DNA of 64,000 nt from Streptomyces sp. SID13031 (lineage in GTDB: Bacteria; Actinomycetota; Actinomycetes; Propionibacteriales; Kribbellaceae). Within the stretch, counting starts at the first letter, position 1; every line of letters starts with the position of its first letter. Location: NCBI RefSeq assembly GCF_010548305.1, contig NZ_JAAGLV010000001.1, forward strand, positions 620,001 through 684,000, in the 5' to 3' direction. This document shows, in pieces, positions 17,916-55,852 of this stretch. A model generated the notes under the pieces. That model had not been told where the DNA came from and searched no databases. It saw nothing but the letters and a program-made list of their open reading frames with translations. The position numbers and the translations under genes were made by a program.

Positions 17916-17933
17916 CCAATGAAAGGCGAATCG

Positions 17934-19184
17934 ATGACGTCGCAGAAGACGGCAGAATTACGGGACAAGCGGGCCGCGGCCTGCCCGCGCGAGCTCAGCA
18001 TCTACTCGCTGACCACCGGCGACGGCGCCGGCCGGGCGCGGGAACTGTTCGGCGCGCTGGCCGAGCGAGGACCGGTGCACTGGGACCCGTACGTCGCCGC
18101 CTGGCTGATCTGCGGCGTGACCGAGGTGACGGCGGTACTGGCCGACGACCGCTTCTCGTCGTACCGGTCGGCCTACTCCCACGGCGAGGCCCCGGCGGCC
18201 GGCGAGACCGATCTGAACGCGGTCGCCGCCCGGATGCTGCTGCTGAAGGACGGCGCCGACCATCTACGCCTCAAGCGGGTCGTCCAAGCGGTGCTGTCGC
18301 CACGCCGGATCAAGGCGCTGGAGCCATGGATGCGCGAGCTGGCCGCCGAGTTGCTGCCCGCCGGGTCCGGGCCGATGGACTTCGCCGGTACGGTCGCCCG
18401 CGACTTCCCGCTACGGGTGCTCGCGAAGCTGCTCGGCATCCCGGCGGCCGACCTGCCGATGGTGCTGGCCGGTTCCGACGCGATGACCGAGATCGTCGGC
18501 GGGCTGAACCCGACACTGGACGAAGAAGTCCATCGCAAGGCCAGGCGGCTGCACGACTACGCCCTCCGGATGGTCCGGGAGGCTCGCGCCAACCCACGCG
18601 ATGACGGCACGACGGATTTCGTTGCCGCCGCTGATGCAGCCGGTGGGTTCGACGACGCCGACATCGCGGCGAACCTGGTGATGCTGATCGCTTCCGGCCA
18701 TCAGACCCTTCCCGGCTTCCTCACGCTGTCCCTGCAGGACGCGTTCGCCCAACCGGACAAGGCGCTCCGGCCAGTACCGGACGCGCTTGCCCATGTGACC
18801 CCGTCGCGCTTTGTCGGCCGGGTCGTCACCGAGCGGGTGGAGCTCGGCGGCTGCCTGCTCGAGACTGGGGACGCGGTCGTCGTACTGCTCGCCGCAGCGA
18901 ACTGGTCGCTTCCGCCCGCCGAACCGGGCAAGCCGCTCAGGCATCTCGCCTTCGGGCACGGACGCCACCGGTGCGCTGGCGCGGCGATGGCCGAGCTGGA
19001 GGCAGCTGTGATGTTCGACCGCCTCGCCGCCGTCTGCCCGGTGACCGGGTCCGGCACGCCGACCCTCAACACCGACGTCAACCTGCCGGCTCTGACCAGC
19101 CAGCCGATCGAACTGCCCGCCACGACCGGGTGCCCGACACATCCCGTCATCTCATCGGAGGACATAGACCATGGACACCAGTGA
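17934..19184 (+). CDS. cytochrome P450 with degenerate K-helix (first gene of operon)
   Basis: 416 residues, bacterial class I size. The haem motif [10 protein letters not shown] is intact (Cys347). The I-helix reads IASGHQT at 252-258, so the Thr is kept but the acidic residue of the usual AGxET motif is Gln257. The K-helix ExxR is not present: the aligned segment is PDALAH at 282-287, with Asp283 for Glu and Ala286 for Arg. GAAAGG at 17921-17926 sets the ATG at 17934. In clusters with carrier-bound amino acids such P450s often hydroxylate the beta-carbon or couple aromatic rings. The 3' end overlaps the halogenase gene by 14 bases. Confidence 0.88.
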
Positions 19185-20781
19185 TCTCACCGACAACCGG
19201 ATCAAGCACGTCGTCATCCTCGGCGGCGGTACCGCAGGCTGGATGACGGCCGCCTACCTGGGCAAGGCCTTGCAGGGCACCACCAAGATCACCGTGCTGG
19301 AGGCGCCCGCGGTGCCCCGGATCGGGGTCGGCGAGGCGACCATCCCGAACCTGCAGTCGGCCTTCTTCGACTTCCTCGGCATCCCCGAGGACGAGTGGAT
19401 GCGGGAGTGCAACGCGAGTTTCAAGGAGTCGATCAAGTTCGTCAACTGGCGCACGCCGGGCGCCGGGCAGGCCACGCCGCGGCTGCGGCCCGATGGTCGC
19501 GAGGACTACTTCTACCACGCGTTCGGAGTGCTGCCGAACCACGATCAGGTGCCGCTGTCGCACTACTGGTTCAACGACCACCACCAGGGCCGCACCGATC
19601 AGGACTTCGCTTTTGCCTGCTTCCCGGTGACCCCGGCGATGGACGCGCACAAGTCTCCGCGCCGGCTCGACGGGACCCGGGTGGCCAGCTACGCCTGGCA
19701 CTTCGACGCGAACCTGGTGGCGGCCTTCCTGTGCAGGTTCGCCGTCCAGAAGCAGGGCGTGAACCACATCAGCGACCAGATGACGGAGGCGGTCCAGGAC
19801 GAGCGCGGCTTCGTCACCGCGCTGAAGACCAAGGGCGGCCGGACGATCGAGGGCGACCTGTTCGTCGACTGCTCGGGCTTCCGTGGGTTGCTGATCAACC
19901 AGGCGATGGCCGAGCCGTTCATCGACATGAGCGACCACCTGCTCAACGACTCCGCGGTCGCGGCCCAGGTCCCGCACGACGACGAGGCCGACGGGATCGA
20001 GCCGTTCACCTCGTCGATCGCGATGTCATCCGGCTGGACCTGGAAGATCCCGATGCTCGGCCGGTTCGGCAGCGGCTACGTGTACTCCTCGAAGTACGCC
20101 GGTGAGGACGAGGCGATCGCCGAGTTCAGCGCGCTGTGGGGGCTGGACCCGAAGAACACCGACTTCAACAAGATCCGGTTCCGGGTCGGCCGCAACGAGC
20201 GGGCCTGGGTGAAGAACGTGGTCAGCGTCGGGCTGGCGTCCTGCTTCGTCGAGCCGCTGGAGTCGACCGGGATCTACTTCATCACCGGCGCGCTCTTCCA
20301 GCTGGCCAAGAACTTCCCGAACCTCGGCTTCGACCCGGTCCTGATCGAGCAGTTCAACGCCGAGATCGAGACGATGTTCGACGACACCCGGGACTTCATC
20401 CAGGCGCACTTCTACTACTCGCCGCGCACCGACACCCCGTTCTGGCGGGCGAACAAGGAGCTGTATCTGGCGGAGGGGTTCCAGGAGAAGGTGCAGATGT
20501 ACAAGTCCGGGATGGTCGTGAACATGCCGATCATCGAGGAGACCGGCTACTACAAGAACTTCGAGGCCGAGTTCCGCAACTTCTGGACCAACAACAACTA
20601 CTACTGCGTACTGGCCGGGCTCGGCGTCCTTCCGGACCAGCCGCTGCCGTCGCTGGCCTATCGGCCCGAATCGGTGGCAGGTGCGGAGTCGGTGTTCGCC
20701 GACCTGCGCCGGCAGCAGGAGGAGCTGCTCTCGTCGCTGCCGTCGACCTACGAATACCTGAAGCAGTTCCACGGAAAGTGA
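19171..20781 (+). CDS. flavin-dependent (tryptophan-type) halogenase
   Basis: 536 residues, the usual length. The FAD motif is [17 protein letters not shown] at 14-30. The halogenase fingerprint W-x-W-x-I-P appears as GWTWKIP at 288-294. The Lys of [13 protein letters not shown] (Lys85) corresponds to the catalytic lysine that forms the chloramine/HOCl relay in PrnA and RebH, and [11 protein letters not shown] near 360 carries the active-site Glu. It should chlorinate or brominate an electron-rich ring, either a free indole or a ring on the neighbouring carrier protein; which one cannot be read from sequence. GGAGG at 19157-19161. Reduced flavin is presumably supplied by the reductase at 24669. 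Confidence 0.93.
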
Positions 20782-20810
20782 CTCGGGCCGGGGACAGGAA
20801 GGCGGAGCCA

Positions 20811-22220
20811 ATGCGGATCGGGATCGTAGGGGCCGGGGCGACCGGGACCAGTGTGCTCGACACGCTGGCCCGGCTGTTGCCGGACGGAGCGGCGGTGACC
20901 GTCTTCGAGGGTGACCGCTACTTCGGTCCGGGGCGCGCTTATCGCCCGGGCAGTGGAGCTGCGTTGGTGAACCTGACCGCACCGAAGATGTCGCTGCGGC
21001 CCGACCAGCCGGGACACTTCCAGGACTGGCTCCCCGCGGACCACCCCGAGTTCGTGTCCCGCGAGCTGTACGGCCGCTATCTCACCGAACTCTTCACCGA
21101 CGCAGCTGATCGGCTCGGCGCCACCCTCATCGGCGAGTATGTGGTGGCGATCGCGCGAGTCGATGGGTCGTACGTGGTCCGAACCGGCCAGGCGGCGTTC
21201 ACCTTCGACGCGGTCTTCCTCTGTGTCGGTGCGGCCACGCCATCGGACGTCTACGAGCTGGCCGGTACGCCGGGCTTCGTGGCCGACCCGTACCCGCTCG
21301 ACACGATGCCGAGCCTCTCGCCGGAAGCCTCGGTGACAGTGCTCGGTACCGGGTTGTCGGCAGTGGATGCAGTACTGGAGCTGATCCAGCGTGGGCATCG
21401 CGGCCGGCTGCGGATGGTCTCGCGCAGCGGATACCTCCCCGGTGTCCGGGACACCCGCACGAAGCCTGTCCTTCGCAGCACCGGCGCGGAGGTGACCAAA
21501 GAACTGTCCCTGCTCGACCTCTACCGGATGGTCAGCGGCGAGTTCCGGGCACAGAAGATCCCGATGACCGAACTCTGGCAGGAGTTCCAGTCAGGCGAGG
21601 ACCCAGCTGCCAGATTGCGACGGCAGTACGGCCAGGTGCTTGCAGGCGCACCGGCGCTGCCGGTGTTCCTGGCGGTGGCCGGACACCTGCTGGAGCACCA
21701 GGCCTGGCGGCTTTTCGGCGACGAGACCCGAGCGGTCTTCCTGCGAGACTGGCATGGTCTGGTCGCCACGCTCTGCGCACCGATGCCCGCCAGGACGGCG
21801 AGACGACTGGTCGGCCTGCTCGACGACGGCCTGCTGCGGGTGTCGGCCGGCCTGACCGGGATTCATGCGCACCACAACGGCTACACGGTCAGCACCGGCC
21901 AAGGTGACTTCGAGACGTCGTACGTCGTCAACACCATCCGTCCCAACCCCGTACCGCTGCCCGGCCGCGCCGCCGAGCTGATCGGCAGCTTGCTGGCCGG
22001 TGAGCTCGCTGACACCCATCCACTCGGCGGGCTGCGACTCGACGCCGAAACTGCCACGGCGCTGGACGGCACTGGGATGCCCAGTCCCGGCCTGTACGTG
22101 CTCGGCGAGCTCGCCATCGGTGAGCTGTACGTCGAGACGACAGTTCTGACCGCGATCACCCACCGCGTCGGGCAGGCGGTCCACCACCTGCTCGGCCGCT
22201 CTTCGAAGGGGGCAGCATGA
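20811..22220 (+). CDS. FAD/NAD(P)-binding oxidoreductase (NAD_binding_9 type)
   Basis: 469 residues. It starts with a dinucleotide fold, MRIGIVGAGATGTSVLDTL, continues with GPGRAYRPGSGAALVNLTAP near 42 and has a second nucleotide-binding segment VTVLGTGLSAVDAVLEL near 175. The 'FGPGxAY...N..A' pattern is characteristic of the FAD-NAD(P)-binding family (PF13454), whose members are poorly characterised and recur in natural-product clusters. It probably oxidises or reduces an intermediate of this pathway. GGAAGGCGGAG precedes ATG 20811. The stop overlaps the next start (ATGA). Confidence 0.75.
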   Translation: MRIGIVGAGATGTSVLDTLARLLPDGAAVTVFEGDRYFGPGRAYRPGSGAALVNLTAPKMSLRPDQPGHFQDWLPADHPEFVSRELYGRYLTELFTDAADRLGATLIGEYVVAIARVDGSYVVRTGQAAFTFDAVFLCVGAATPSDVYELAGTPGFVADPYPLDTMPSLSPEASVTVLGTGLSAVDAVLELIQRGHRGRLRMVSRSGYLPGVRDTRTKPVLRSTGAEVTKELSLLDLYRMVSGEFRAQKIPMTELWQEFQSGEDPAARLRRQYGQVLAGAPALPVFLAVAGHLLEHQAWRLFGDETRAVFLRDWHGLVATLCAPMPARTARRLVGLLDDGLLRVSAGLTGIHAHHNGYTVSTGQGDFETSYVVNTIRPNPVPLPGRAAELIGSLLAGELADTHPLGGLRLDAETATALDGTGMPSPGLYVLGELAIGELYVETTVLTAITHRVGQAVHHLLGRSSKGAA

Positions 22221-23911
22221 CCAGCCTGATTCCCGCGCTGATCGAGGACCGGATCCGCCGGACCCCGGACCGGTTGTGCCTCAGCGGTCCCGACGGCGAC
22301 CTGACCTATCAGCAGGTCGGCGACCTGACCGCCGTCCTGGCCGAGGACCTCGTAGCCCAAGGTGTCGAGCCCGGTGAGATCGTCGCGGTCGACGCGCCCC
22401 GGTCGACCTTGGGCGTATGCCTGGCGCTGGCCGTCTGGCGGGCCGGCGCGGCGTTCCTGCTGTTCGATCCGATGCAGCCGGAGTTGCGCCGCCAGGAACT
22501 GCTGACCGACGCCGGCGTCCGGTTCCGGATGGGTGCTGTCGGCAACGAGGCGACGGTCGACGTGGTGAGCGAACAGGACCCGACTGTGGTCGACGACCTG
22601 GCCTACGTCGTCTACACGTCCGGCTCGACCGGTACGCCGAAGGGCGTGCTGTGCCGGCACAGGTCGCTGCCGCCGATCGTCGAGATGGCGATCGAGGGGT
22701 TCGGGATCGCCGACACCGACCGGGTGGCGATGCTGGCGCCGTACCACGTCGAGGGTGTCGTCTTCGAGTTGATGGCGGCGCTCGCGATCGGTGGCAGCCT
22801 GCACATCCCCGGACCGGACGAGCGGCAGGGTGCTGTCGAGCTGACGAAGTTCCTGCGCGAGCACGAGGTCAGCGTTCTGGTCGGTACGCCGACCCGGCTC
22901 GGGGATCTCGATCCGCTGCGGCTGCCGGCGCTGCGCGTGGTGATCAGTGCGGGGGAGGACCTCGCGCCTGAGCTGGCGCGCCGGTGGGCTGATGGGCGGC
23001 GGCTGATCAACAGCTATGGCGTGACTGAGGCGACGATCGCGAGCACCTTTGTGGTCATCTCGCCGGATGTCGAGCGGGTGCCGATCGGGCGGCCGATCGC
23101 GCACAACACTGTGCTGCTGCTGGATGCGGAGCGGCGGCCGGTCGCGGCGGGCTCGGCTGGCGAGTTGTATCTCGGTGGTGCCGGGGTTGCGGCTGCTTAT
23201 CTGAACCAGCCTGAGCTCACCGCCGAACGGTTTGTCGAGGTGGACGGTGCCCGGATGTACCGGACCGGCGACTTTGCGGAGGCTGACGAGAACGGACTGC
23301 TGTACTTCGCCGGGCGGCGCGATGCGCAGGTGCAGCTGGGCGGGTTCCGGGTCGAGCCGGGGGAGGTGCGGGCGATGTTGCATGGTCATCCAGGGGTGCA
23401 TGACTGCGCTGTTGTCGCGCGGGATCAGCGGTTGGTCGCGTACGTCGTGTCGGTGGGTGAGGCTGTGGCGCCGGCGGAGTTGCGGGAGTGGCTTGTTGAG
23501 CGGTTGCCCGCTTACCTGGTGCCCTCTCGGTACGTCGTACTCGACGAACTACCGCGGACCGCGTGGGGGAAGGTGGATCTTCAGGCGTTGCCGGACATTG
23601 CGTCGGTCAAGCAGGGCGATCAGCTCACCTTGGGCAGCGCGGCGGGTCAGGATGCGGCAGGCGGGCAGGGGCGGCCGGTGCAGGTTGCGATGGCTGTTGC
23701 TGTGGGCAACCTGTTGGAGCTGGGAGAGATCGGGGTTGATCAGTACGACGAGGACCTGTTCCTGCTCGGGCTGACGTCGATCCTGGTCGCCAAGCTGATC
23801 CGCCGGATCGAGGCGGAGCTCGGCGTCCAGCTGAGCCCGGTCGACGTGTTCGAGCACCCGACGATCGGCGAGCTGGCCGAGGTCGTCGAGCTGCTCAGGT
23901 TCGCGGCATGA
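22217..23911 (+). CDS. NRPS-like adenylation domain fused to a carrier protein (A-PCP)
   Basis: 564 residues. Adenylation motifs are A3 VVYTSGSTGTPKG at 131-143, A5 NSYGVTEATIAS near 265, A7 YRTGD at 348, A8 GRRDAQVQLGGFRVEPGEV near 366 and the A10 lysine at 452 (AWGKVD). The carrier domain follows at about 490-560 with the phosphopantetheine site Ser521 in LLGLTSI. No condensation or C-terminal thioesterase domain is present, so it loads one acid and holds it for tailoring enzymes, as NovH-type A-PCP proteins do for tyrosine. By hand alignment the A4 segment gives Glu179 where alpha-amino-acid domains have Asp235, so an unusual substrate is possible. Confidence 0.9.
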   Translation: MTSLIPALIEDRIRRTPDRLCLSGPDGDLTYQQVGDLTAVLAEDLVAQGVEPGEIVAVDAPRSTLGVCLALAVWRAGAAFLLFDPMQPELRRQELLTDAGVRFRMGAVGNEATVDVVSEQDPTVVDDLAYVVYTSGSTGTPKGVLCRHRSLPPIVEMAIEGFGIADTDRVAMLAPYHVEGVVFELMAALAIGGSLHIPGPDERQGAVELTKFLREHEVSVLVGTPTRLGDLDPLRLPALRVVISAGEDLAPELARRWADGRRLINSYGVTEATIASTFVVISPDVERVPIGRPIAHNTVLLLDAERRPVAAGSAGELYLGGAGVAAAYLNQPELTAERFVEVDGARMYRTGDFAEADENGLLYFAGRRDAQVQLGGFRVEPGEVRAMLHGHPGVHDCAVVARDQRLVAYVVSVGEAVAPAELREWLVERLPAYLVPSRYVVLDELPRTAWGKVDLQALPDIASVKQGDQLTLGSAAGQDAAGGQGRPVQVAMAVAVGNLLELGEIGVDQYDEDLFLLGLTSILVAKLIRRIEAELGVQLSPVDVFEHPTIGELAEVVELLRFAA

Positions 23912-24669
23912 CCGCCGTCCGGAGTCTGTGGTTCCCGCGGCTCGCGCGAAGTGAGGCGACCCGGGTCCGGCTCGTGTGCTTCGGCGGTGCTGGTACCGGG
24001 TCGACCGAGTTCGCGACCTGGCAGGCCGGATTGCCTTCTACTGTTGAGGTTTGGGCCGCTCAGTTGCCCGGGCGCGAACGGCGGATCCGGGAGGCCCCGG
24101 CGGCGAGCATGGCCGAGTTGGCCGATCCGCTGGCCGCTGAGCTGCGGCTGGAGGACGACGGCACCCCCTGGGCGTTCTTCGGGCACAGTTTCGGCGCGCT
24201 GATCGCCTACGAGGTCGCGCGGCGGCTCGCCGGTCAGGTAGCACTGGCCGGGGTGGTCGCCGCCTCCAGCGTCGTACCGCACCTGCAAGCCACTCGATTG
24301 CCCGTCACGTCCGATGACGACGAGACCTTGCTCGCCTGGGCCGCCGCTGCCAACGGCACCGAGGCGGGCCTGCTTTCGGATGCCCGGTTCGCTCGCTGGC
24401 TGGCGGAAGACCTCCGGGTGACCCTGCGAATCCGGCGCGAGTATCCGTCCACGGCGCCAGAGCCGCTGCCCTGTCCGGTGCTGGCGATCGGCGGCGCGGG
24501 CGACGCCGACGCCACCGCGACGGACCTCGCGCAGTGGCAGCAGTACACCGCCGTCGGCCTCGACCAGCTCGAGCTCGGCCAAGGCCATTTCTTCCTGCGT
24601 GACGACCGCACCTCCTTGCTGACAGCCCTTTCCAGCCACCTCGCCAACTGGACACTAGGGAGTACCTGA
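23908..24669 (+). CDS. type II thioesterase
   Basis: 253 residues of the alpha/beta-hydrolase fold. The nucleophile elbow is FGHSFGA with Ser94, the acid is in GGAGDAD near 194 and the histidine is in GQGHFFL near 228. The LVCFGGAGTG and QLPGRERR segments are typical of RifR/GrsT-type editing thioesterases. It would free misloaded carriers, or release the tailored product from the A-PCP, since no other releasing domain is encoded here. It overlaps both neighbours by 1-4 bases. Confidence 0.88.
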   Translation: MTAVRSLWFPRLARSEATRVRLVCFGGAGTGSTEFATWQAGLPSTVEVWAAQLPGRERRIREAPAASMAELADPLAAELRLEDDGTPWAFFGHSFGALIAYEVARRLAGQVALAGVVAASSVVPHLQATRLPVTSDDDETLLAWAAAANGTEAGLLSDARFARWLAEDLRVTLRIRREYPSTAPEPLPCPVLAIGGAGDADATATDLAQWQQYTAVGLDQLELGQGHFFLRDDRTSLLTALSSHLANWTLGST

Positions 24670-25205
24670 TGTCTCTCGAACTCACCACCTATGCAGACCA
24701 AGGAGTCACCGCGGCTGTCTCGCCAACGGACTTCCGGATGATGATGGCGAACTTCCCCACCGGGGTATCGATCGTGACAGCGATCGGCAACGGCGGGGCG
24801 CCGATCGGGATGACGTGCTCGTCGGTGTGCAGTGTCTCCGTCTCGCCGCCGACCCTGATCGTCTGCCTGCGCAGGGAGAGCCCGACGCTGGCCGCAGTAC
24901 TGGCCCGCGGTTCGTTCGCGGTGAACCTGCTGCACGAGGGCTCCCGGTCCAAGGCGGAGCTGTTCGCCTCGGGGCAGTCCGATCGCTTCGACCAGGTCCG
25001 CTGGCGGCACGAACCGGGGTACGGGGGACCGCATCTCGTCGAGGACGCGCACGTGGTCGGTCATTGCCGGGTCGGGCAGACCGCGTTCGTCGGCGATCAT
25101 GCCGTCGTGTTCGGCGAGGTCCGGCAGGTCGGCAGCCATCCGGAGGAACGCCGGCCGCTGCTCTACGGCCTGCGCGACTACGCGGCCTGGCCGGTGCCGG
25201 AATGA
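24669..25205 (+). CDS. flavin reductase (HpaC/RebF-like)
   Basis: 178 residues of the flavin-reductase split-barrel family. FPTGVSIVTAIG near 29, GMTCSSVCSVSVSPPTLIVCL near 47, FAVNLLHEGS near 83 and the Asp-His-x-x-x-x-G-E-V segment (GDHAVVFGEV near 142) are the usual marks. It reduces FAD or FMN with NAD(P)H and should feed FADH2 to the halogenase encoded in the same operon. The start overlaps the thioesterase stop by one base (TGATG). Confidence 0.9.
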   Translation: MSLELTTYADQGVTAAVSPTDFRMMMANFPTGVSIVTAIGNGGAPIGMTCSSVCSVSVSPPTLIVCLRRESPTLAAVLARGSFAVNLLHEGSRSKAELFASGQSDRFDQVRWRHEPGYGGPHLVEDAHVVGHCRVGQTAFVGDHAVVFGEVRQVGSHPEERRPLLYGLRDYAAWPVPE

Positions 25206-26548
25206 CGACCACGCGCCCGCAGGTGCCGACCGCCCCCCGGCGCCTGCCGGGTGCTTTGCCCTTGATCGGGCACGGCCTGGCGATGCGGCGCGAAGCGTTG
25301 GACTTCATCGCCGGAGCCCGCGAGCACGGCGAGGTGGTCGAGCTGCGGTTGGGCCCCAAGCCCGCCTATCTCGTCACCTCGCCGGCTGGCGTTCGGGACT
25401 TGCTGGTCAACCACAGCCAGGTGACGGCCAACGGTGTCCTGTTCGAGAAGCTCAAGATCCTTGGCGGCGACGGGATCGGCAGCATCTACGGCCCGCCGCA
25501 CCGCCGACGGCGAAGACTGCTCACCCCGCTGTTCAGCCAGCAGCAGGCGGCCGGGTACGGCGAGGTCGCCGCCGCGGTGACCGCGGAGAAGGCTGACTCC
25601 TGGTCAGACGGCCAGCAGATCCGGCTGGACGAGCACCTGCACGAGATGGCGGCGGCCATCGTCGTCCGCAGCCTCTTTCCCGGCGGCGGAGTCGCCGCGG
25701 TCGCCCGCGCGGCCCAGGATCTGCCAGTCGTCTTCAAGGGCGTCGCCAAACGCGCCTACGCGCCGACTGAGCTGCTGTTCGCTCTGCCGACACCGGACAA
25801 CCAGCGCTTCGCCGCGGCCAATCGGCGATTGCACGGGTTGGTCGACGACATCATCGAGGAGTGCCGGCGCGACCCCAGCGAGACCGGCATGCTCGCGGCG
25901 CTGCTCGCCGCCCGGGACGAGGAGACCCAGGAGCCGCTGACCCACGCGCAGGTGCACGACGAGGTGATGACGATGTTCTTCGTCGGCACCGAAGCGTCGG
26001 CGGCGGCGTTCGGCTGGATCTTCCACCTGCTGGATCGCCACCCCGAGGTGGCTTCCCGGGTACACGCCGAGCTGGACGAGGTGGTCGGCAAACGACCGGT
26101 CGGGTACGCCGACGTCCAGCGGCTCGGCTACCTGCGGCAGGTGACGCACGAGGCGCTGCGGATGTACCCGCCGGGTTGGTTGTTCCCGCGGATTCCGCAA
26201 CAGGATCTGGTCATCGCCGGCTACCGGATCCCGGCCGGTACCAACGTGTTCTACAGTCCCTACGCGCTGCATCGTGATCCGGCCTCCTTCGCCGAGCCGG
26301 ACCGGTTCGACCCGGACCGCTGGTCGGCCGACCGGGCTGCGGCGATCCCGCGGGATGCCTATCTGCCGTTCGGCGAAGGGGCTCGGACGTGTATCGGCGG
26401 TGCCTTCGCCTTGTCGGAGGCGATGATCGTGGCCGCCGGGCTGCTGTCGCGCTGGCGGCTGATCGGCGTCGACGGCCACCGGGTCACTCCCGTCGCGGCG
26501 ACGACTCTGCATCCGGATCGGCTCGACATGGTCGTCCGGGCCCACTGA
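25202..26548 (+). CDS. cytochrome P450, second of the cluster
   Basis: 448 residues, longer than the first and of a different type: the N-terminal PRRLPGALPLIGHGL proline-rich segment and the E-x-x-R (HEALRMYPP, Glu317/Arg320), FDPDRW and FGEGARTCIGG (Cys397) motifs are those of CYP4/CYP102-like or terpene-associated bacterial P450s. The I-helix reads FFVGTEAS, with Ala-Ser in place of the usual Thr. No membrane anchor is seen. The start overlaps the reductase stop (ATGA). It is the last gene of the operon, followed at once by a strong hairpin. Confidence 0.9.
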   Translation: MTTTRPQVPTAPRRLPGALPLIGHGLAMRREALDFIAGAREHGEVVELRLGPKPAYLVTSPAGVRDLLVNHSQVTANGVLFEKLKILGGDGIGSIYGPPHRRRRRLLTPLFSQQQAAGYGEVAAAVTAEKADSWSDGQQIRLDEHLHEMAAAIVVRSLFPGGGVAAVARAAQDLPVVFKGVAKRAYAPTELLFALPTPDNQRFAAANRRLHGLVDDIIEECRRDPSETGMLAALLAARDEETQEPLTHAQVHDEVMTMFFVGTEASAAAFGWIFHLLDRHPEVASRVHAELDEVVGKRPVGYADVQRLGYLRQVTHEALRMYPPGWLFPRIPQQDLVIAGYRIPAGTNVFYSPYALHRDPASFAEPDRFDPDRWSADRAAAIPRDAYLPFGEGARTCIGGAFALSEAMIVAAGLLSRWRLIGVDGHRVTPVAATTLHPDRLDMVVRAH

Positions 26549-49332: not shown

Positions 49333-49920
49333 GTGAAACCCATCGCCCGGCTGGTCATGGCTCTTTTCGCGGCAACCGTCCTCATCGGACCCGCGAGTCT
49401 GGCAGCAGCCGCTCCGGTGGCCCCGGCCGCTCAGCACCGGCCGACTTGCTCCGTGGTCTGGTTCGACCTCGGCAACACCCTGGTGGACACCAGAGTGCCT
49501 GGGAAGACCACCTGGATGCCCGGCGCATTGCGCCACTTGTGGCTGCTGCGGAGCGTTGGCGTGCCGATCGGCCTGATCACCAATGTGCCGCCGGAGTGGG
49601 GTGCGACCGACGCCGAGCGCGCCGCCGCGACCAAGGCCTTCGTCAACTCGACCTGGTCCGAGTCCCAGCCGTTCCCGTGGGAGTGGTTCGGCGACCGGAT
49701 CCTGACCCCGCGGACCAAGGCCGAGTCCAAGCCGGCACCCGCGTTGTTCGAGCGTGGCCGGGACTCGGCGGCGCCGTGCCGGTCGTTCTACGAAGGTGAG
49801 ACGCCCGGTGAGATCACGGTGGCGGAGCAGTCGGGGCTGACCGGGTATCTGATCGGTCAGCCGGACCGCCCCGCCTACCTTCCGGTGTGGCGCGTGCTGG
49901 TGCCGTTTCTAGCTGGGTAG
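49333..49920 (+). CDS. secreted HAD-superfamily-like protein
   Basis: 195 residues. A Sec signal covers about residues 1-27 (LVMALFAATVLIGPASLAAA). The mature part starts with a HAD motif I variant VVWFDLGNTLVDT: Asp45 is kept but the second catalytic Asp is Gly47 (DLGNT). A KPAPALFERG segment near 136 fits motif III (Lys), and YEGETPGEITVAEQSGLTGY near 156 fits motif IV. Loss of the acid Asp suggests altered or no phosphatase activity. GTG 49333 has GGAGG 4-5 bases upstream. It is convergent with the ATP-grasp gene. Confidence 0.7.
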   Translation: MKPIARLVMALFAATVLIGPASLAAAAPVAPAAQHRPTCSVVWFDLGNTLVDTRVPGKTTWMPGALRHLWLLRSVGVPIGLITNVPPEWGATDAERAAATKAFVNSTWSESQPFPWEWFGDRILTPRTKAESKPAPALFERGRDSAAPCRSFYEGETPGEITVAEQSGLTGYLIGQPDRPAYLPVWRVLVPFLAG

Positions 49921-51258
49921 GGCAGCTTCCAACCCGTCGAGGACGGCGCGGCAGTCGCGGAGGAGCGTCGGCGCATCCGCGGCGGTCAGCAGGAAGACAC
50001 CCAGCCAGTTGCGGGATCCGCCCGACGGGTCGAACTCGGGGACCCGAGTCCCGGCGGGCAGCATGAAGGCGGGCACGGGCTCGACGGTGCTGCTGGGGGA
50101 GAGCAGGGTCGACCAGTCCACCTTCTCGGGGTGCCACAGCGGCTGGGTCTGCCACGGGGTACCGGCGGAGTCGGCGGGCACCACGGCGACGGAAGCAGCG
50201 GCGCGCCCGCCGTCCACCAGCATGGCCGGCGGGTAGTCGACCTGCTCGCCGAGTTGCTCGCGGATCAGCATGCCGATCGGGTCCAGGTCGAAGACGACCT
50301 CGACCTGCCGGGTGGTCAGCAGGCCGCCGAAGCGGGCTCCTACCTCGATCACCACGAGCTCGCCGTCCGCGCGCAGCTTGAGCTCCGTGTGGGTGCCGCA
50401 GGTGTCCAGCCCGAGGGCGTCGACCGCACGCCGGGAGACCTCCTCGATCCGCCGCTGCAGCTCCTCGGGCAGGACGCAGGGCGACGTACTGGCGACCTCG
50501 ATGTACGGCGGTACGGTCGGCAGCTTGGCGGTGATCGCCAGGGCGTGGTACTTGCCCTTGGCAACGATGCCCTCGACGCTCAGGTAGTCGCCGTAGCCGG
50601 GCTCCGGGTACCAGCCCTCGGTGGTGCCGTCCATGATCTCTTCGACCAGCCGGTCGGCATCGGTGTTCTGCTCGTACAGCTCGTTCATGCCGACCTGGCC
50701 GCCCCGCTCCAGCGCCTGCTCGATCTCCGACCAGGCGTCAGCGACCTGGTCCTGCGAGGTCAGTACGAGCTGGGCCACGGAACCGGCGCCCCAGGCCGGC
50801 TTGAGCAGCAGCGGCGGGGTCAACGCGGCCAGCGCGCCGTGTAGGTCGGCGGCGGAGTCCACCCGGCGGAACCGGGGGATCGGCACCCCCGCGGCCTGCC
50901 AGGCCTGTCGCATCAGTCGCTTGTCCCGGGCGACCCGGATGCCCGGGCCCGCACCGGCCAGGCCGAGCCGGTCCGCAGCGTTGGCCACGGCCAGTACTGC
51001 GAACTCGGACAGCGTGAACAGCGCGTCCGCGCCGAGCTCACTGGCGTGCGTGACGATCGCCTCGACCACCGGCTCACCCGGCGTCAACCCGCCGGGGTGC
51101 ACGGTGATGCTCGTGCAGCACGGCTCCCAGATCTCCTTGCCGGCTTCGGGCAGCGGCGACAGCGCGAGCACGTGCAGCTCGCCGCAGGCTGCGATCCGGG
51201 GGAACGCGGTCTCCAGCGGAGCGCCGCCCTTGACGTAGACGTAGAGGATCTTCTTCAC
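49909..51258 (-). CDS. ATP-grasp ligase
   Basis: 449 residues. N-terminal pre-ATP-grasp fold (MKKILYVYVKGGAPLETAFP), then the ATP-grasp core: DKRLMRQAWQAAGVPIPRFR near 116, LLLKPAWGAGSVAQLVL near 152 (ATP-binding Lys and Gly loop), TELKLRADGELVVIEVGARF near 298 (Mg-binding Glu residues) and GGLLTTRQ near 319. This is the BacD/carnosine-synthase-like class that joins a carboxylate to an amine through an acyl phosphate. GTG 51258 overlaps the MFS stop (GTGA), making it the last gene of a three-gene operon. Confidence 0.85.
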   Translation of the reverse strand: MKKILYVYVKGGAPLETAFPRIAACGELHVLALSPLPEAGKEIWEPCCTSITVHPGGLTPGEPVVEAIVTHASELGADALFTLSEFAVLAVANAADRLGLAGAGPGIRVARDKRLMRQAWQAAGVPIPRFRRVDSAADLHGALAALTPPLLLKPAWGAGSVAQLVLTSQDQVADAWSEIEQALERGGQVGMNELYEQNTDADRLVEEIMDGTTEGWYPEPGYGDYLSVEGIVAKGKYHALAITAKLPTVPPYIEVASTSPCVLPEELQRRIEEVSRRAVDALGLDTCGTHTELKLRADGELVVIEVGARFGGLLTTRQVEVVFDLDPIGMLIREQLGEQVDYPPAMLVDGGRAAASVAVVPADSAGTPWQTQPLWHPEKVDWSTLLSPSSTVEPVPAFMLPAGTRVPEFDPSGGSRNWLGVFLLTAADAPTLLRDCRAVLDGLEAALPS

Positions 51259-52478
51259 GCGACGCTCTCCTTGGTGGCCGCGCGGTCGCGGCTTCGAATG
51301 ATGAATAGGGCGAGGGCGATCATCGCCACGGTGACGGCTGCGGCCAGCAGGACCAGGAAGCCCGACATCGCGCCCCGGGCGAGGAATCCGCCCAGCACGA
51401 AGACGACGAGCGCGCAGACGGCGCGGTCGGCGAGCGACTCGACGGACAGCAGCGTGGCCCGGCGGGCGGGTTCGGTGATGGCCTGGTTGACCAGCTTGCG
51501 CTGCACGGGGAACGCGAGTCCGGACGCGAGCGAGAACACCGCGAGGCAGGCCATCGTGCCGACCAGGCCTAGCGGGATGACCGCGGCCAGCGCGACAGCC
51601 ATCAGCACGGTCAGCACCAGCACCACCCGGAGCTGTCCGAACCGGGCCAGTACTTTGGAACGCGCGGCGCCGGCCACCTCGAACACGGTCGTCGCGGCCA
51701 TCAGCACGCCGAACCAGTGCAGCGGGAGGTCCTTCGACTCCAGGATCGGCTGGAACAGATTGGCCTGCCCGATCCGGACCAGCGTGAAGATCGCGATGCC
51801 TTGGGCCATCAGCAGCATCAGCCGCTTCGACGAGCGCAGCGACCGCAGCGCACCGGCGAGCGCGGGTAGTACCGGCTCGACCGTCGCCGGGTCCTCGGCT
51901 GTCTTCGGGAGAGCGGGGAAGCCCAGTGCGATCACGGCCGCGATCGCGCACGTCACCGCGGACAGCAGGTAGGGCGATGGGCCGTACCACTGCATCAGGA
52001 ACCCGGCGGCGGGTAGACACGCGATCCGGCCGATCAGGGTCCAGGCGCGGGCCGATCCCTCGGCGCCCTGGTACGCCGTGTCGTTGCCGGTCCGGTGCAA
52101 GTACTCATATAAATAAGCACTGCCCGCACCCGAGAACAGCGAGTGGGCCAACGCGATCAACAGGAACTGGGCGAGGAACCCGCCGAAGGTGGCGTGCCAG
52201 ACCGGGATCACGTTCGCCACGACGAGGATGACGGCGCCACCCTGCAAGCACCGGCGGTAGTCGAACCGGTCGGCGATCATCCCGGTCGGGATGTCGAGCA
52301 GGCAGAACGCCAGGTAGAAGATGCTCTGGATGGAGAAGATCTCCTGGTCCGACAGACCGGCGGTCCGCTGGAAGACGTAGAAGACGGGCAACCACCACAG
52401 CAGTCCGGCGAACAACTGGAAGGCGTTGTAGCGGCGGATCACCCGCGCCGCGTCGGGGCTCGTCGAGACCTTGCTCAT
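51255..52478 (-). CDS. MFS transporter
   Basis: 407 residues with 12 predicted membrane helices. The loop after helix 2 reads DIPTGMIADRFDYRRCLQGG near 59-78, a form of the MFS motif A (D-x-x-G/DRF). No large loops or domains are added. By position between a dikinase-like gene and an ATP-grasp ligase it probably exports their product (inference). ATG 52478 overlaps the preceding stop (ATGA). Confidence 0.85.
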   Translation of the reverse strand: MSKVSTSPDAARVIRRYNAFQLFAGLLWWLPVFYVFQRTAGLSDQEIFSIQSIFYLAFCLLDIPTGMIADRFDYRRCLQGGAVILVVANVIPVWHATFGGFLAQFLLIALAHSLFSGAGSAYLYEYLHRTGNDTAYQGAEGSARAWTLIGRIACLPAAGFLMQWYGPSPYLLSAVTCAIAAVIALGFPALPKTAEDPATVEPVLPALAGALRSLRSSKRLMLLMAQGIAIFTLVRIGQANLFQPILESKDLPLHWFGVLMAATTVFEVAGAARSKVLARFGQLRVVLVLTVLMAVALAAVIPLGLVGTMACLAVFSLASGLAFPVQRKLVNQAITEPARRATLLSVESLADRAVCALVVFVLGGFLARGAMSGFLVLLAAAVTVAMIALALFIIRSRDRAATKESVA

Positions 52479-54475
52479 GCGGCGAGCTGGTACGGACGGC
52501 ACTGCAGCAGCACGATCCGGTCGCCGTCGACGAGCCACTCGACGTCAACGGGAGCGTCGACGGATCCGTCGGCACCCGCGAAATGGGCCTGGAGCAACCG
52601 TCCGATCAGGGCGAGCCGGCCGAGGGTGGCCTTCGCCTGGTCGTCCACGTCGGATGGTTCGGCGCCCATCGCCACCGTGCGGCTGCCGCCCTCCATCGTG
52701 TTGTAGAGGTGCTGCAGCGGGTCCCGGGTACCGGATACGACGTCGTCGACCGAGTTGCGGGCGAGGTTCAGCAGGACGGAGCGGAAGTCGGTCCGGTCGA
52801 GCGGGTTGGTGGTGACCATGACGCCACCGAGCTCGCCGTCGAGCTGCTGCTGGATGACGACGCCCATGAAGCAGTCGGACAGCCCGATCCCGGCTTCGTC
52901 GCGGAGCAGTACGCCGCGGGTGGTGACGAGGGAGGCCCAGACCCGTTGGATCGCGTGGATCACGTCCTCGATCGACTTGACCTCGGGGACCGACTCGTAG
53001 ATCCCGGCGGCGGAGAAGCCGATCAGGTCCTCGGCGTTGGACGAGCTGCGGACGACGACGCGGCCGGCGCCGGTGAGGTGGCGTAGTACCGAGTCCTCGA
53101 TCAGGGTGCGCAGCTCGGCCGGCAGCGGGGTGTCGCGGATCAGGCCGCCGAGTTCGGCGCACAGGCCGTCGATCTCGCCGCCGAGGGCGAGGGCCATCTT
53201 CAGTTTGCCGATGGTCTGCTGGATCGCCGGCGACGACTCCAGGAACTGCTGCTGCAACGCGAACGGCAGAGCGATACCGCGCGGCACGACCGCGTGCTCG
53301 GTGACCATCCGCTGGGCCGCCTGGTCCAGTACGCCGGCATCCGTGCCGGTGGTCTCGAGCTGACGGGCGAGGTACTCGAGCAGGTGCGGTCGCGGCGGCC
53401 GCGGCGCCTGGTAGAAGCCAAGCCAGTAAGGGGATCCGTCGCGCAGTACCGCCGTCAGCTCGCCGAGATTCGCGGCCTTGGTGCCGAAGCGGTGGGCGTC
53501 GGTGGACCTCAGGTGTTCCAGCGGAAGGATCTGGGCGGCGGCCAGGTCGGGCTTGCCGATGTCGACCTGGGTGGTGGCCCACGGCGGGCCGTCGTCGATC
53601 GAGTCGGGCCGGGACACCGTTCGTACGGCCAGCTCCGGGGCAGCCTGGTCGACGGTCACCTCGACCCAGTCGCCGTCCAGCTCGGCAAGGTTGGTCAGCG
53701 CGCCCTGCTGGATGGCGTTCGGGATACCCCAGCCGGCCGCGAGCACGTTGGTGTGCGACAGGGGGGTGGTGTGCCGGGCATTGATCAGCCCGGACAGCCG
53801 CGGGATGTCGTCGGGCATCCGCTCCATCACCAGGATGTCGTGCCAGCGCACGGGGTCGGTGGTGGTTCGGTAGGCGGCCTCGTCGGCGAACACGCGCAGG
53901 CGGCCGATCGTCGTACCGGGGTTGAGCGGGACGTACGGCGCGGTGGAGTACAGCTCGTGCGCGAGGATCAGGGGCAGCTGCTCGGCCGACTCCCGCAGGA
54001 AGCTTTCCTGCAGGTGGTTGGCGGGCTTCAGCAAGACCGGGACCGCGTCGTCGACGAGGGTGCGGACCGTGCGGTAGAAGGAGCGCAGCAGGTCGGGGCC
54101 CATCGTGTCGACCTCGACGGTCTCCAGCGAGACGAACAGACCGCCGTACTCCGGACGGTCGTGCAGCGCGAGCGTCCCGAGCAGGAAGCGCCGGTCATCG
54201 GCGCGGTAGACGGAGTCGTTGAACGCATCCAGATTCCGGGCCAGCTCGGCCCGCGTCATGCCGAGGATCCGCTCGGCGACGTACTGGACGTGCAGCATCC
54301 GCTCGGCGCCGTCGATCAGGTGGACGGTCGAGGTCTCCTGGTCGAGGACGAGCTTCACATAGGGGTAGCCGGCGACCGTGGTCGCGAGGCCCGAGAAGTC
54401 GGCCAGCGTAAGGCGATCACCGGGCAGCGGGGGAACGATGGCGGTCAGGTCAGAGGGGGCGGGGGCGGTAGGCAC
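52475..54475 (-). CDS. PEP synthase/dikinase-like protein with swivel domain before the ATP domain
   Basis: 666 residues. Residues about 230-285 are a phosphohistidine swivel domain with INARHTTPLSHTNVLAAGWG, His241 aligning with the catalytic His. Residues about 325-664 are a complete PPDK/PEP-synthase ATP-binding domain: FGTKAANLGEL at 330-340, VVVRSSSNAEDLIGFSAAGI near 473-492 and VDVEWLVDGDRIVLLQCRPY at 643-662. The swivel-then-ATP order is that of glucan water dikinase, not of PEP synthase or rifampin phosphotransferase. The first 230 residues are unrecognised and may bind the acceptor. GTG 54475 has no ribosome site; TATTGT 8-13 bases upstream suggests a leaderless mRNA. Confidence 0.82.
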   Translation of the reverse strand: MPTAPAPSDLTAIVPPLPGDRLTLADFSGLATTVAGYPYVKLVLDQETSTVHLIDGAERMLHVQYVAERILGMTRAELARNLDAFNDSVYRADDRRFLLGTLALHDRPEYGGLFVSLETVEVDTMGPDLLRSFYRTVRTLVDDAVPVLLKPANHLQESFLRESAEQLPLILAHELYSTAPYVPLNPGTTIGRLRVFADEAAYRTTTDPVRWHDILVMERMPDDIPRLSGLINARHTTPLSHTNVLAAGWGIPNAIQQGALTNLAELDGDWVEVTVDQAAPELAVRTVSRPDSIDDGPPWATTQVDIGKPDLAAAQILPLEHLRSTDAHRFGTKAANLGELTAVLRDGSPYWLGFYQAPRPPRPHLLEYLARQLETTGTDAGVLDQAAQRMVTEHAVVPRGIALPFALQQQFLESSPAIQQTIGKLKMALALGGEIDGLCAELGGLIRDTPLPAELRTLIEDSVLRHLTGAGRVVVRSSSNAEDLIGFSAAGIYESVPEVKSIEDVIHAIQRVWASLVTTRGVLLRDEAGIGLSDCFMGVVIQQQLDGELGGVMVTTNPLDRTDFRSVLLNLARNSVDDVVSGTRDPLQHLYNTMEGGSRTVAMGAEPSDVDDQAKATLGRLALIGRLLQAHFAGADGSVDAPVDVEWLVDGDRIVLLQCRPYQLAA

Positions 54476-54535
54476 GAGAGATCACAATAAGGTAAAGGCT
54501 GCCACTCACGGTAGTTCGCGTAACCCTCTGTGAGC

Positions 54536-54558
54536 ACAATCACGCATAGCGAGATTGT
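54536..54558. promoter_or_regulatory. 6+6 inverted repeat upstream of the dikinase operon
   Basis: ACAATC at 54536-54541 and GATTGT at 54553-54558, 11-base spacer, about 60 bases from the dikinase GTG. AT-rich half-sites one helical turn and a half apart are typical of dimeric repressors (GntR/LacI-like). No linked regulator gene. Confidence 0.4.
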
Positions 54559-54681
54559 TGCTGGAGGCAACTGGTGTGGTACTTAATCGATTCACTAGGT
54601 TTGGGTGGATCGATGCGCGTTAGCGCACGGCAATCCATATATCTGTGCAGGTTATTGCAGCATTGTCTTGACGGGGCGGAG

Positions 54682-54709
54682 CGGGATAGCTTTACTTGGC
54701 GTTATCCCG
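54682..54709. promoter_or_regulatory. 7+7 inverted repeat upstream of BadF-type kinase
   Basis: CGGGATA at 54682-54688 and TATCCCG at 54703-54709 with a 14-base loop. Either an operator or a leader hairpin about 130 bases before the kinase start. Confidence 0.4.
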
Positions 54710-54835
54710 GGCGAGGTTCTGGGGTGAAATGCACCCAGCCGGTGCGGGCCTCTGTGGTGGCTCGGAGTCCGGTCGTCAGGCGCCAGGGCTCGCGGCCCGA
54801 GGCGGGGTCGCATGCTCGTGAGCGGCGGAGCGATT

Positions 54836-55852
54836 GTGTCCGAATCCCCTTTACTTTCGAGTGATCCAGGCGTTTTCCTGGGAGTTGACGGCGGGGGTAC
54901 GAAGACCGCGTTCGCCCTGGTGAGCAGTGCTGGTGAGTTGCTCGCCAGCGCGCTGGCGCCCAGTTCCTACTACCTCGGGCAGAGCATCGACCTGGTCGAG
55001 GAGGTGCTGCGCGAGGGCGTCGACTCCGTCTGCGGCTCGGCAGGGGTTCCGCCTGAGCAGCTTGCCTACGCTTTCGTCGCGCTCCCCGGTTATGGCGAGG
55101 TCAGCGGCGACGTCGAGACGCTGAACGCGATCCCCGGTCGCGTTCTCGGCCATCAGCGCTACAGCTGCGACAACGACATGGTCGCCGGCTGGGCCGGATC
55201 GCTGGGTGCCGTCGACGGGGTCAACGTCATCGGCGGTACCGGGTCTATGGCGTACGGCGAGAACAACGGCCGCGGGCTGCGGGTCGGTGGCTGGGGGGAA
55301 CTGTTCGACGACGAGGGGTCGGCGTACTGGATCGCGATCCGCGGGCTGAGCGCCTTCGCGAAGATGTCCGACGGCAGGCTGTCTCCAGGCCCGCTGCGCG
55401 AACACCTGATCGCGCACCTGCAGCTCGCCGCGGAGCTGGATCTGGTCGACGTCGTCCTGAATCGCTGGCAGGGCGATCGAGCCAAGATCGCGTCCTTGGC
55501 GCGACTGGTCTCCGCGGCTGCGGCGGACGGCGACGACACCTGTACTGCGATCCTCCGCGAGGCCGGGCAGGCCTTGGCCGGCTTGGTGATGTCCACGGTC
55601 GACCAGCTCGACTACGCCCCTGGTCAGGTAGTACCCGTGTCCTGGTCGGGCGGTGTCTTCACCAGCGACGAGGTTCGTACTACGTTCGAGAAGCAACTCG
55701 CCGATGCCCCGGTCGAGTTGCGCGATCCCATGCTCCCTCCGGTGGTCGGTGCTGCCTTGTATGCAGCTCGTTTGGCAGGCAGCCCGTTGAACGCCGAGAC
55801 CGTCGCCAAGCTGCGCACCGCCACCGTCGCCCAAAGTGCTAGTGATGAGTGA
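54836..55852 (+). CDS. BadF/BadG-type ATPase, N-acetylglucosamine kinase-like
   Basis: 338 residues of the ASKHA fold. Phosphate 1 loop FLGVDGGGTKTAFALVSS near 13-30, adenosine/phosphate 2 region GVNVIGGTGSMAYGENNGRG near 130, GWGELFDDEGSAYWIAIRGL near 154 and VSWSGGVFTSDEV near 270. These fit sugar-kinase-like BadF members (N-acetylglucosamine or related amino sugars). GTG 54836 has GGAG 5 bases before it; an earlier ATG at 54812 lacks one. No sugar transporter or isomerase is adjacent, so the substrate is open. Confidence 0.82.
   Translation: MSESPLLSSDPGVFLGVDGGGTKTAFALVSSAGELLASALAPSSYYLGQSIDLVEEVLREGVDSVCGSAGVPPEQLAYAFVALPGYGEVSGDVETLNAIPGRVLGHQRYSCDNDMVAGWAGSLGAVDGVNVIGGTGSMAYGENNGRGLRVGGWGELFDDEGSAYWIAIRGLSAFAKMSDGRLSPGPLREHLIAHLQLAAELDLVDVVLNRWQGDRAKIASLARLVSAAAADGDDTCTAILREAGQALAGLVMSTVDQLDYAPGQVVPVSWSGGVFTSDEVRTTFEKQLADAPVELRDPMLPPVVGAALYAARLAGSPLNAETVAKLRTATVAQSASDE

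What the first reader, a model, noticed from the sequence alone, without database searches (positions are those of the whole stretch)
49909..54475. Dikinase-like / MFS / ATP-grasp operon: a possible undescribed small-molecule pathway
Three genes overlap by ATGA/GTGA: a protein with phosphohistidine swivel and PEP-synthase-type ATP domains, an exporter, and a BacD/carnosine-synthase-like ATP-grasp ligase. Dikinase-family enzymes phosphorylate rifampin, glucans and L-glutamine, and ATP-grasp ligases make dipeptides or amides. Together with an exporter, the set looks like activation or phosphorylation of a compound, peptide-like ligation and export, or self-protection by phosphorylation. I know of no described pathway with this trio.
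Basis: partly seen in the sequence, partly recalled or inferred. Interest (0 to 1): 0.72.

Follow-up and report, generated by a model that had tools for sequence, protein, structure and literature searches.

The report
Conserved phosphodipeptide-making operon with phosphatase
Three overlapping genes that recur as a unit in about one in nine Streptomyces and several other soil actinomycetes probably join two amino acids, attach a phosphate to the product and export it, and a secreted phosphatase-like protein follows them through genomes even when it is not next to them.

Summary
Window 54475-49909 (minus strand; a Kribbella) carries a dikinase-like phosphotransferase (DIK, 666 aa), an MFS transporter and a BacD-type ATP-grasp ligase (LIG), overlapping by ATGA and GTGA. 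The trio is a conserved unit: intact in 46 of 48 Streptomyces loci, in Kribbella, Labedaea and one Lentzea, in two gene orders with variable flanks; DIK occurs in 45 of 393 Streptomyces genomes. DIK keeps the phospho-histidine and ATP residues in 40 of 40 sequences, but the His domain precedes the ATP domain and there is no PEP-binding barrel. Best reading: LIG makes a dipeptide, DIK phosphorylates it (probably on nitrogen), MFS exports it, HAD acts on it outside. Closest described chemistry: phosphoramidon/talopeptin and phaseolotoxin. A thermolysin-type protease gene immediately follows the trio in three loci, and a deoxysugar glycosyltransferase flanks it in one, as a phosphoramidon-like metabolite would predict.

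The parts
52475..54475 (-). DIK: dikinase-like phosphotransferase, 666 aa. Layout: N-terminal domain of unknown fold (about 1-180), phospho-histidine swivel (about 184-290, His241), ATP-binding domain (about 320-663).
   Evidence: PPDK_N E 2.7e-32; His241, Lys333, Arg476, Glu482, Asp483, Glu646, Gln658, Arg660 in 40/40 homologues; Foldseek best matches rifampin phosphotransferase and PEP synthase (low TM-scores)
51255..52478 (-). MFS: major-facilitator transporter, 407 aa; start overlaps the DIK stop (ATGA)
   Evidence: MFS_1 E 3e-19; conserved directly after DIK
49909..51258 (-). LIG: BacD-type ATP-grasp amino-acid ligase, 449 aa; start overlaps the MFS stop (GTGA)
   Evidence: profile match to BacD 3wo1/3vmm E about 1e-73; Lys113, Lys153, Glu292, Glu305, Arg309 in 29/29; position of BacD Trp332 is Ala, Leu or Val
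49333..49920 (+). HAD-like hydrolase, 195 aa, with Sec-type signal peptide (by eye); convergent with LIG; co-occurs with the trio across genomes
   Evidence: Asp45, Thr83, Lys133, Glu156, Glu160 invariant; model pLDDT 83; Foldseek top hit HisB phosphatase domain (E 1e-5, prob 1.0)
54476..54811 (.). intergenic region between DIK and the divergent BadF/BadG-type ATPase gene (54812-55852 +); probable site of the operon promoter
   Evidence: no sigma-70-type consensus found, so the promoter is inferred only

Best explanation
The operon is a minimal pathway for an exported phosphorylated dipeptide, most likely an N-phosphoryl (phosphoramidate) dipeptide of the phosphoramidon/talopeptin kind. LIG activates one amino acid as an acyl phosphate and joins it to a second. 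Its pocket lacks the Trp that keeps the BacD N-terminal residue small, so the first residue is probably larger than alanine. DIK loads phosphate from ATP onto His241, swings the His domain, and passes the phosphoryl group to the free amine of the dipeptide. MFS exports the product. In about 60% of carriers a secreted HAD-like hydrolase acts on the product outside the cell, most simply by removing the phosphate and so switching it off. Shown: gene set, conservation, domain content, intact ATP and His residues, HAD co-occurrence. Inferred: dipeptide as product, nitrogen as acceptor, metalloprotease inhibition as use, dephosphorylation by HAD.
For: Conserved trio with translational overlaps in Streptomyces, Kribbella, Labedaea and one Lentzea, with variable flanks, so the trio itself is the unit. 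DIK: phospho-His and ATP residues in 40/40 and no PEP/pyruvate barrel, so the acceptor is not pyruvate. LIG is closest to a known dipeptide ligase; the BacD Trp332 position is Ala 19, Leu 6, Val 4 of 29, and PMC6920838 names Trp332 as a key pocket residue. Precedent: phtL deletion abolishes phaseolotoxin but not the peptide by-product, and agrocin 84 has homologues agnD1/agnD2 (PMC4530439); glutamine kinase makes an N-P bond (PMC6429109); phosphoramidon uses an N-P-bond-forming kinase (title cited in PMC9961378). A thermolysin-type M4 protease is the immediate downstream gene in L111, L119 and L120, in two DIK clades; naive binomial p about 1e-5; the phosphoramidon idea was formed before. An EryCIII-type deoxysugar glycosyltransferase diverges from DIK in L136. 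HAD-trio co-occurrence p about 8e-29, and 4e-11 outside linked pairs, both ignoring ancestry.
Against: No product is known, and O-phosphorylation is not excluded. Eleven Lentzea loci carry DIK+MFS without adjacent LIG, and 5 of 7 Lentzea genomes tested have no LIG homologue at all, so DIK can be kept without this ligase. HAD is absent from Labedaea, Lentzea and 17 of 45 DIK-positive Streptomyces. The HAD motif has Gly where many HAD phosphatases have the second Asp. M4 genes number 1-15 per genome, and three such neighbours among 47 loci is thin. The BacD His276 position is Ser or Gly here.
Confidence: 0.48

Rival explanations
1. Self-protection and reactivation: LIG makes a toxic small peptide or amide, DIK masks it with phosphate inside the cell, MFS exports the inactive form, and the secreted HAD removes the phosphate outside to release the active compound, as in the streptomycin logic (phosphotransferase plus secreted phosphatase, from memory).
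For: The secreted HAD-like hydrolase tracks the trio across genomes even when unlinked; the HAD model matches phosphatases; reverse chemistry outside the cell is the simplest link between a kinase and a secreted phosphatase.
Against: No gene for an unusual toxic amino acid is conserved near the trio, and dipeptides of ordinary amino acids are rarely toxic; 17 of 45 DIK-positive Streptomyces and Labedaea lack HAD; HAD activity is untested and its motifs are atypical.
Confidence: 0.25
2. DIK plus MFS is at heart a resistance pair against an outside compound (like rifampin phosphotransferase with an efflux pump), and LIG adds a second modification in some lineages.
For: Lentzea species keep DIK+MFS without LIG; the nearest solved relative of the ATP domain is rifampin phosphotransferase.
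Against: LIG is next to DIK in 47 of 48 Streptomyces loci (a remnant in the other) and in Kribbella and Labedaea, too constant for an add-on; the DIK layout differs from rifampin phosphotransferase (His domain before ATP domain); no NCBIfam rifamycin-phosphotransferase cut-off is reached.
Confidence: 0.12
3. DIK phosphorylates a hydroxyl group (or a single amino acid before ligation), so the exported product is an O-phospho-dipeptide or phospho-amino-acid conjugate used as signal or antimetabolite.
For: Dikinase-family enzymes are known on hydroxyls (rifampin, glucans; general knowledge); the unknown N-terminal domain could hold such a substrate.
Against: The described small-peptide precedents with a dikinase-like enzyme involve N-P bonds; a dipeptide from LIG always offers a free amine.
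Confidence: 0.12
4. DIK is a condensing enzyme like PigC/RedH, using a phosphoryl intermediate to form a bond without phosphate in the product.
For: NCBIfam hits to PigC (1.9e-20) and RedH (2.2e-15) over the ATP domain.
Against: These hits cover only the ATP domain common to the whole superfamily and lie far below cut-off; domain order differs.
Confidence: 0.03

Closest known systems
Phosphoramidon/talopeptin pathway of Streptomyces (TalE kinase, TalC glycosyltransferase; Baulig et al. 2019, doi 10.1039/C9SC00641A, text not held)
   Same: A dipeptide carrying an N-phosphoryl group made by a dedicated kinase in actinomycetes; inhibitors of thermolysin-type proteases (PMC6429109); a deoxysugar glycosyltransferase also flanks the trio in L136.
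   Different: No glycosyltransferase of this type in the window or the other trio loci examined; that TalE is PEP-synthase-like is my memory, and its sequence could not be compared.
Phaseolotoxin cluster (PhtL with ATP-grasp ligases PhtQ/PhtU)
   Same: Dikinase/PEP-synthase-like protein needed for a phosphoramidate peptide, together with ATP-grasp amino-acid ligases (PMC4530439, PMC11278893).
   Different: 23 genes against 3-4; sulfodiaminophosphinyl group on ornithine; different phylum; sequences not compared.
BacD/BacE of bacilysin
   Same: L-amino-acid ligase of the same ATP-grasp type; BacE is also an MFS exporter (memory).
   Different: No kinase; the Trp332 pocket residue of BacD is replaced here by Ala/Leu/Val; LIG scores 175 bits against an 850-bit NCBIfam cut-off.
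Rifampin phosphotransferase (RPH)
   Same: Best solved relative of the ATP domain; phospho-His swivel; no PEP barrel.
   Different: Order ATP-rifampin-His in RPH (memory), N-terminal-His-ATP here; sequence similarity only over the ATP domain.
L-glutamine kinase of Campylobacter capsule synthesis
   Same: N-phosphorylation of an amino-acid substrate, described as making an N-P bond (PMC6429109).
   Different: Substrate is the glutamine amide, for capsule modification rather than an exported peptide; sequence not compared.

Membership tests
PPDK/PEP-synthase dikinase superfamily | PPDK_N ATP-binding domain with intact ATP residues | tested here: met
   PF01326 E 2.7e-32, over cut-off; Lys333, Arg476, Glu646, Gln658, Arg660 in 40/40
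PPDK/PEP-synthase dikinase superfamily | Phospho-histidine swivel domain with catalytic His | tested here: met
   TPLSHTNV with His241 in 40/40; PF00391 only at E 0.021, below cut-off, so by motif rather than by score
PEP synthase / PPDK proper | C-terminal PEP/pyruvate-binding barrel | tested here: not met
   protein ends with the ATP domain; no match to the barrel family
Rifampin phosphotransferase | NCBIfam RIF_Ptrans_rph score and ATP-rifampin-His domain order | tested here: not met
   84 bits against cut-off 999; domain order differs
BacD-type L-amino-acid ligase | ATP-grasp fold with BacD-like core and Mg/ATP residues | tested here: met
   profile E about 1e-73 to BacD structures; Lys113, Lys153, Glu292, Glu305, Arg309 in 29/29
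Alanine--anticapsin ligase (BacD itself) | NCBIfam equivalog cut-off and Trp332 | tested here: not met
   174.8 bits against 850; Ala/Leu/Val at the Trp332 position
Phosphoramidon/talopeptin cluster | TalE-orthologous kinase | not testable with these tools
   paper and sequence not held; no named record found
Phosphoramidon/talopeptin cluster | glycosyltransferase for the deoxysugar next to the kinase | tested here: not met
   no homologue of the L136 enzyme beside the trio in the window or other loci; EryCIII-type GT only in L136
HAD superfamily | HAD fold with nucleophile Asp, motif II Thr, motif III Lys, motif IV acidic residues | tested here: met
   Foldseek hits are HAD proteins, prob 1.0; Asp45, Thr83, Lys133, Glu156/160 invariant; no Pfam match over cut-off
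HAD phosphatases with DxD motif | second Asp of motif I | tested here: not met
   DLG instead, as in YihX-like HADs (YihX motif from memory; its structure 8pno is among the hits)

The most novel reading that the evidence does not exclude
A widespread, undescribed extracellular phosphopeptide system of soil actinomycetes: three enzymes make and export an N-phosphoryl dipeptide that restrains thermolysin-type proteases, and a dedicated secreted HAD enzyme of a new family cleaves the N-P bond to end the inhibition, a make/export/erase circuit for a phosphoramidate.
Probability: 0.2. Interest if true: 0.85.

Novelty: new variant of a known kind. Interest (0 to 1): 0.6.

Why it matters
Natural phosphoramidates are rare and few enzymes that make N-P bonds are known. 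If the reading is right, about 11% of sampled Streptomyces species carry a three-gene route to such compounds that can be rebuilt in vitro from two soluble enzymes, ATP and amino acids. The secreted HAD-like partner, linked by co-occurrence rather than by position alone, makes the question of what happens to the phosphate outside the cell directly testable.

Tried and rejected
Trio as a one-strain accident: rejected. Defence system: no PADLOC match. DIK as PEP synthase or rifampin phosphotransferase: rejected by lack of barrel, domain order and cut-offs. BadF/BadG ATPase (54812-55852) as a further partner: seen beside DIK only in the window and one close Kribbella, L132. TTA (bldA) control: one TTA in the window MFS but not conserved. 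Promoter consensus: nothing found. Glycosyltransferase as a general partner: only L136. Neighbours of unlinked HAD genes: no shared context. Literature on TalE: the key paper is not held; the agrocin 84 plasmid is not in the collection; the leupeptin-inactivating-enzyme precedent (inhibitor plus secreted inactivator in Streptomyces, from memory) was not found in the library. DIK structure: the N-terminal domain gave no recognisable Foldseek match (model pLDDT 77, pTM 0.63).
Full report
Observation. The window lies in an 8.5 Mb Kribbella genome (close relatives named). A convergent gene at 49333-49920 (+) ends 12 bases inside the LIG end.

Conservation. Full-length DIK is in 7 of 38 Kribbella genomes, in Labedaea and Lentzea, and in 45 of 393 Streptomyces genomes. 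In a sample of 395 genomes across the class it was found only in Kribbella and in six genomes of one further genus, which is Streptomyces (locus L086 of that genus is the same place as the named Streptomyces plasmid). Neighbourhoods of 58 DIK loci (57 distinct; L050 and L086 coincide) show LIG-DIK-MFS in Streptomyces and DIK-MFS-LIG in Kribbella, Labedaea, one Streptomyces (L128) and one Lentzea (L136), at 42-63% identity between the distant groups. In Streptomyces the trio is complete in 46 of 48 loci; L121 is decayed and L122 lacks MFS. A PAS/LuxR-type regulator sits next to the trio in 45 loci. Other flanks vary, so the trio is the conserved unit.

Enzymes. DIK matches PPDK_N at 396-663, and the conserved GTKAANLGEL stretch with Lys333 marks the start of the ATP domain; the phospho-His motif TPLSHTNV lies at His241, ahead of it. 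There is no PEP-binding barrel. His241 and the ATP residues are the same in 40 of 40 sequences. The structure model is moderate (pLDDT 77) and matches rifampin phosphotransferase and PEP synthase, at low TM-scores; the N-terminal 180 residues match nothing. The same order of domains is known to me, from memory, in plant glucan water dikinases. LIG is closest to BacD. At the position of BacD Trp332, visible in the alignment where one BacD chain has Trp and the 3wo1 chain has Ala, this family has Ala, Leu or Val. PMC6920838 describes Trp332 as a key pocket residue and BacD as limited to small N-terminal residues. That a larger first residue is accepted is my inference.

The missed partner. The 49333-49920 product has an N-terminal signal sequence by eye, two conserved cysteines and HAD motifs with Asp45, Thr83, Lys133, Glu156 and Glu160 invariant. 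Its model (pLDDT 83) matches HAD phosphatases, HisB first. It is convergent with the trio in 24 other loci of Kribbella and Streptomyces. Across 393 Streptomyces genomes it is in 28 of 45 with DIK and 2 of 348 without; in Kribbella in 7 of 7 with and 1 of 31 without. In 10 Streptomyces and 2 Kribbella it lies elsewhere in the genome, in unrelated contexts; leaving out linked pairs the association stays (10 of 27 against 2 of 348, p about 4e-11). The p-values ignore shared ancestry and are therefore too small, but linked and unlinked cases occur in several DIK clades. Across the class it was found only in the same two genera. It was not found in Labedaea or in 10 Lentzea genomes, so it is an accessory, not a required part.

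Meaning. A BacD-type ligase plus a phospho-His kinase lacking a pyruvate site points to a phosphorylated dipeptide. Nitrogen is the likelier acceptor because related kinases in peptide pathways are tied to N-P bonds: phtL deletion abolishes phaseolotoxin but not the peptide by-product, and agrocin 84 carries homologues; glutamine kinase forms an N-P bond; phosphoramidon is made with an N-P-bond-forming kinase (title; further details from memory). Phosphoramidon inhibits thermolysin and other metalloproteases, and an M4 protease gene is the immediate downstream neighbour in L111, L119 and L120. The phosphoramidon hypothesis came first, but the count is small. The EryCIII-type glycosyltransferase beside the trio in L136 fits a phosphoramidon-like variant.

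What stays open. Lentzea DIK+MFS pairs without LIG allow a resistance reading. The secreted HAD-like protein allows a prodrug reading (phosphate on inside, off outside) as well as an off-switch reading; the present data do not decide, and HAD activity itself is inferred from fold and motifs. Whether the trio is orthologous to the talopeptin genes could not be tested.

Verdict. A real, widespread, minimal pathway of a known kind of chemistry, in an arrangement I found no description of, with a new secreted partner.

Noticed in passing
window 17919-26548 (+): Run of genes that by their first residues look like a flavin-dependent tryptophan-halogenase-type protein (19171-20781), an AMP-binding enzyme, a thioesterase-like protein, a flavin reductase and a P450: a possible halogenated-metabolite cluster.
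   Followed up: no
L158 (Kribbella G028): This genome lacks the trio but has the HAD gene at the syntenic site, between the same outer genes as in the window: trio lost there, or HAD older at this place.
   Followed up: partly
L093, L098, L099, L102 (about 12.2-13.0 kb, oriented) and L150:6296-7147: A SAM-dependent methyltransferase-like family directly downstream of MFS in four related Streptomyces; a homologue sits next to the unlinked HAD gene in G497.
   Followed up: no
L008-L016, L018, L019 (Lentzea): DIK+MFS pair in a fixed context downstream of a KDPG/KHG aldolase gene, without LIG.
   Followed up: partly
L121; G615:C3:22551-24827: Decayed operons: L121 keeps DIK but has truncated LIG and MFS; DIK of G615 matches in two pieces.
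   Followed up: no
window 52110-52112 (MFS codon 123): Single TTA codon in a short AT-rich stretch of the MFS gene; not conserved in homologues.
   Followed up: yes
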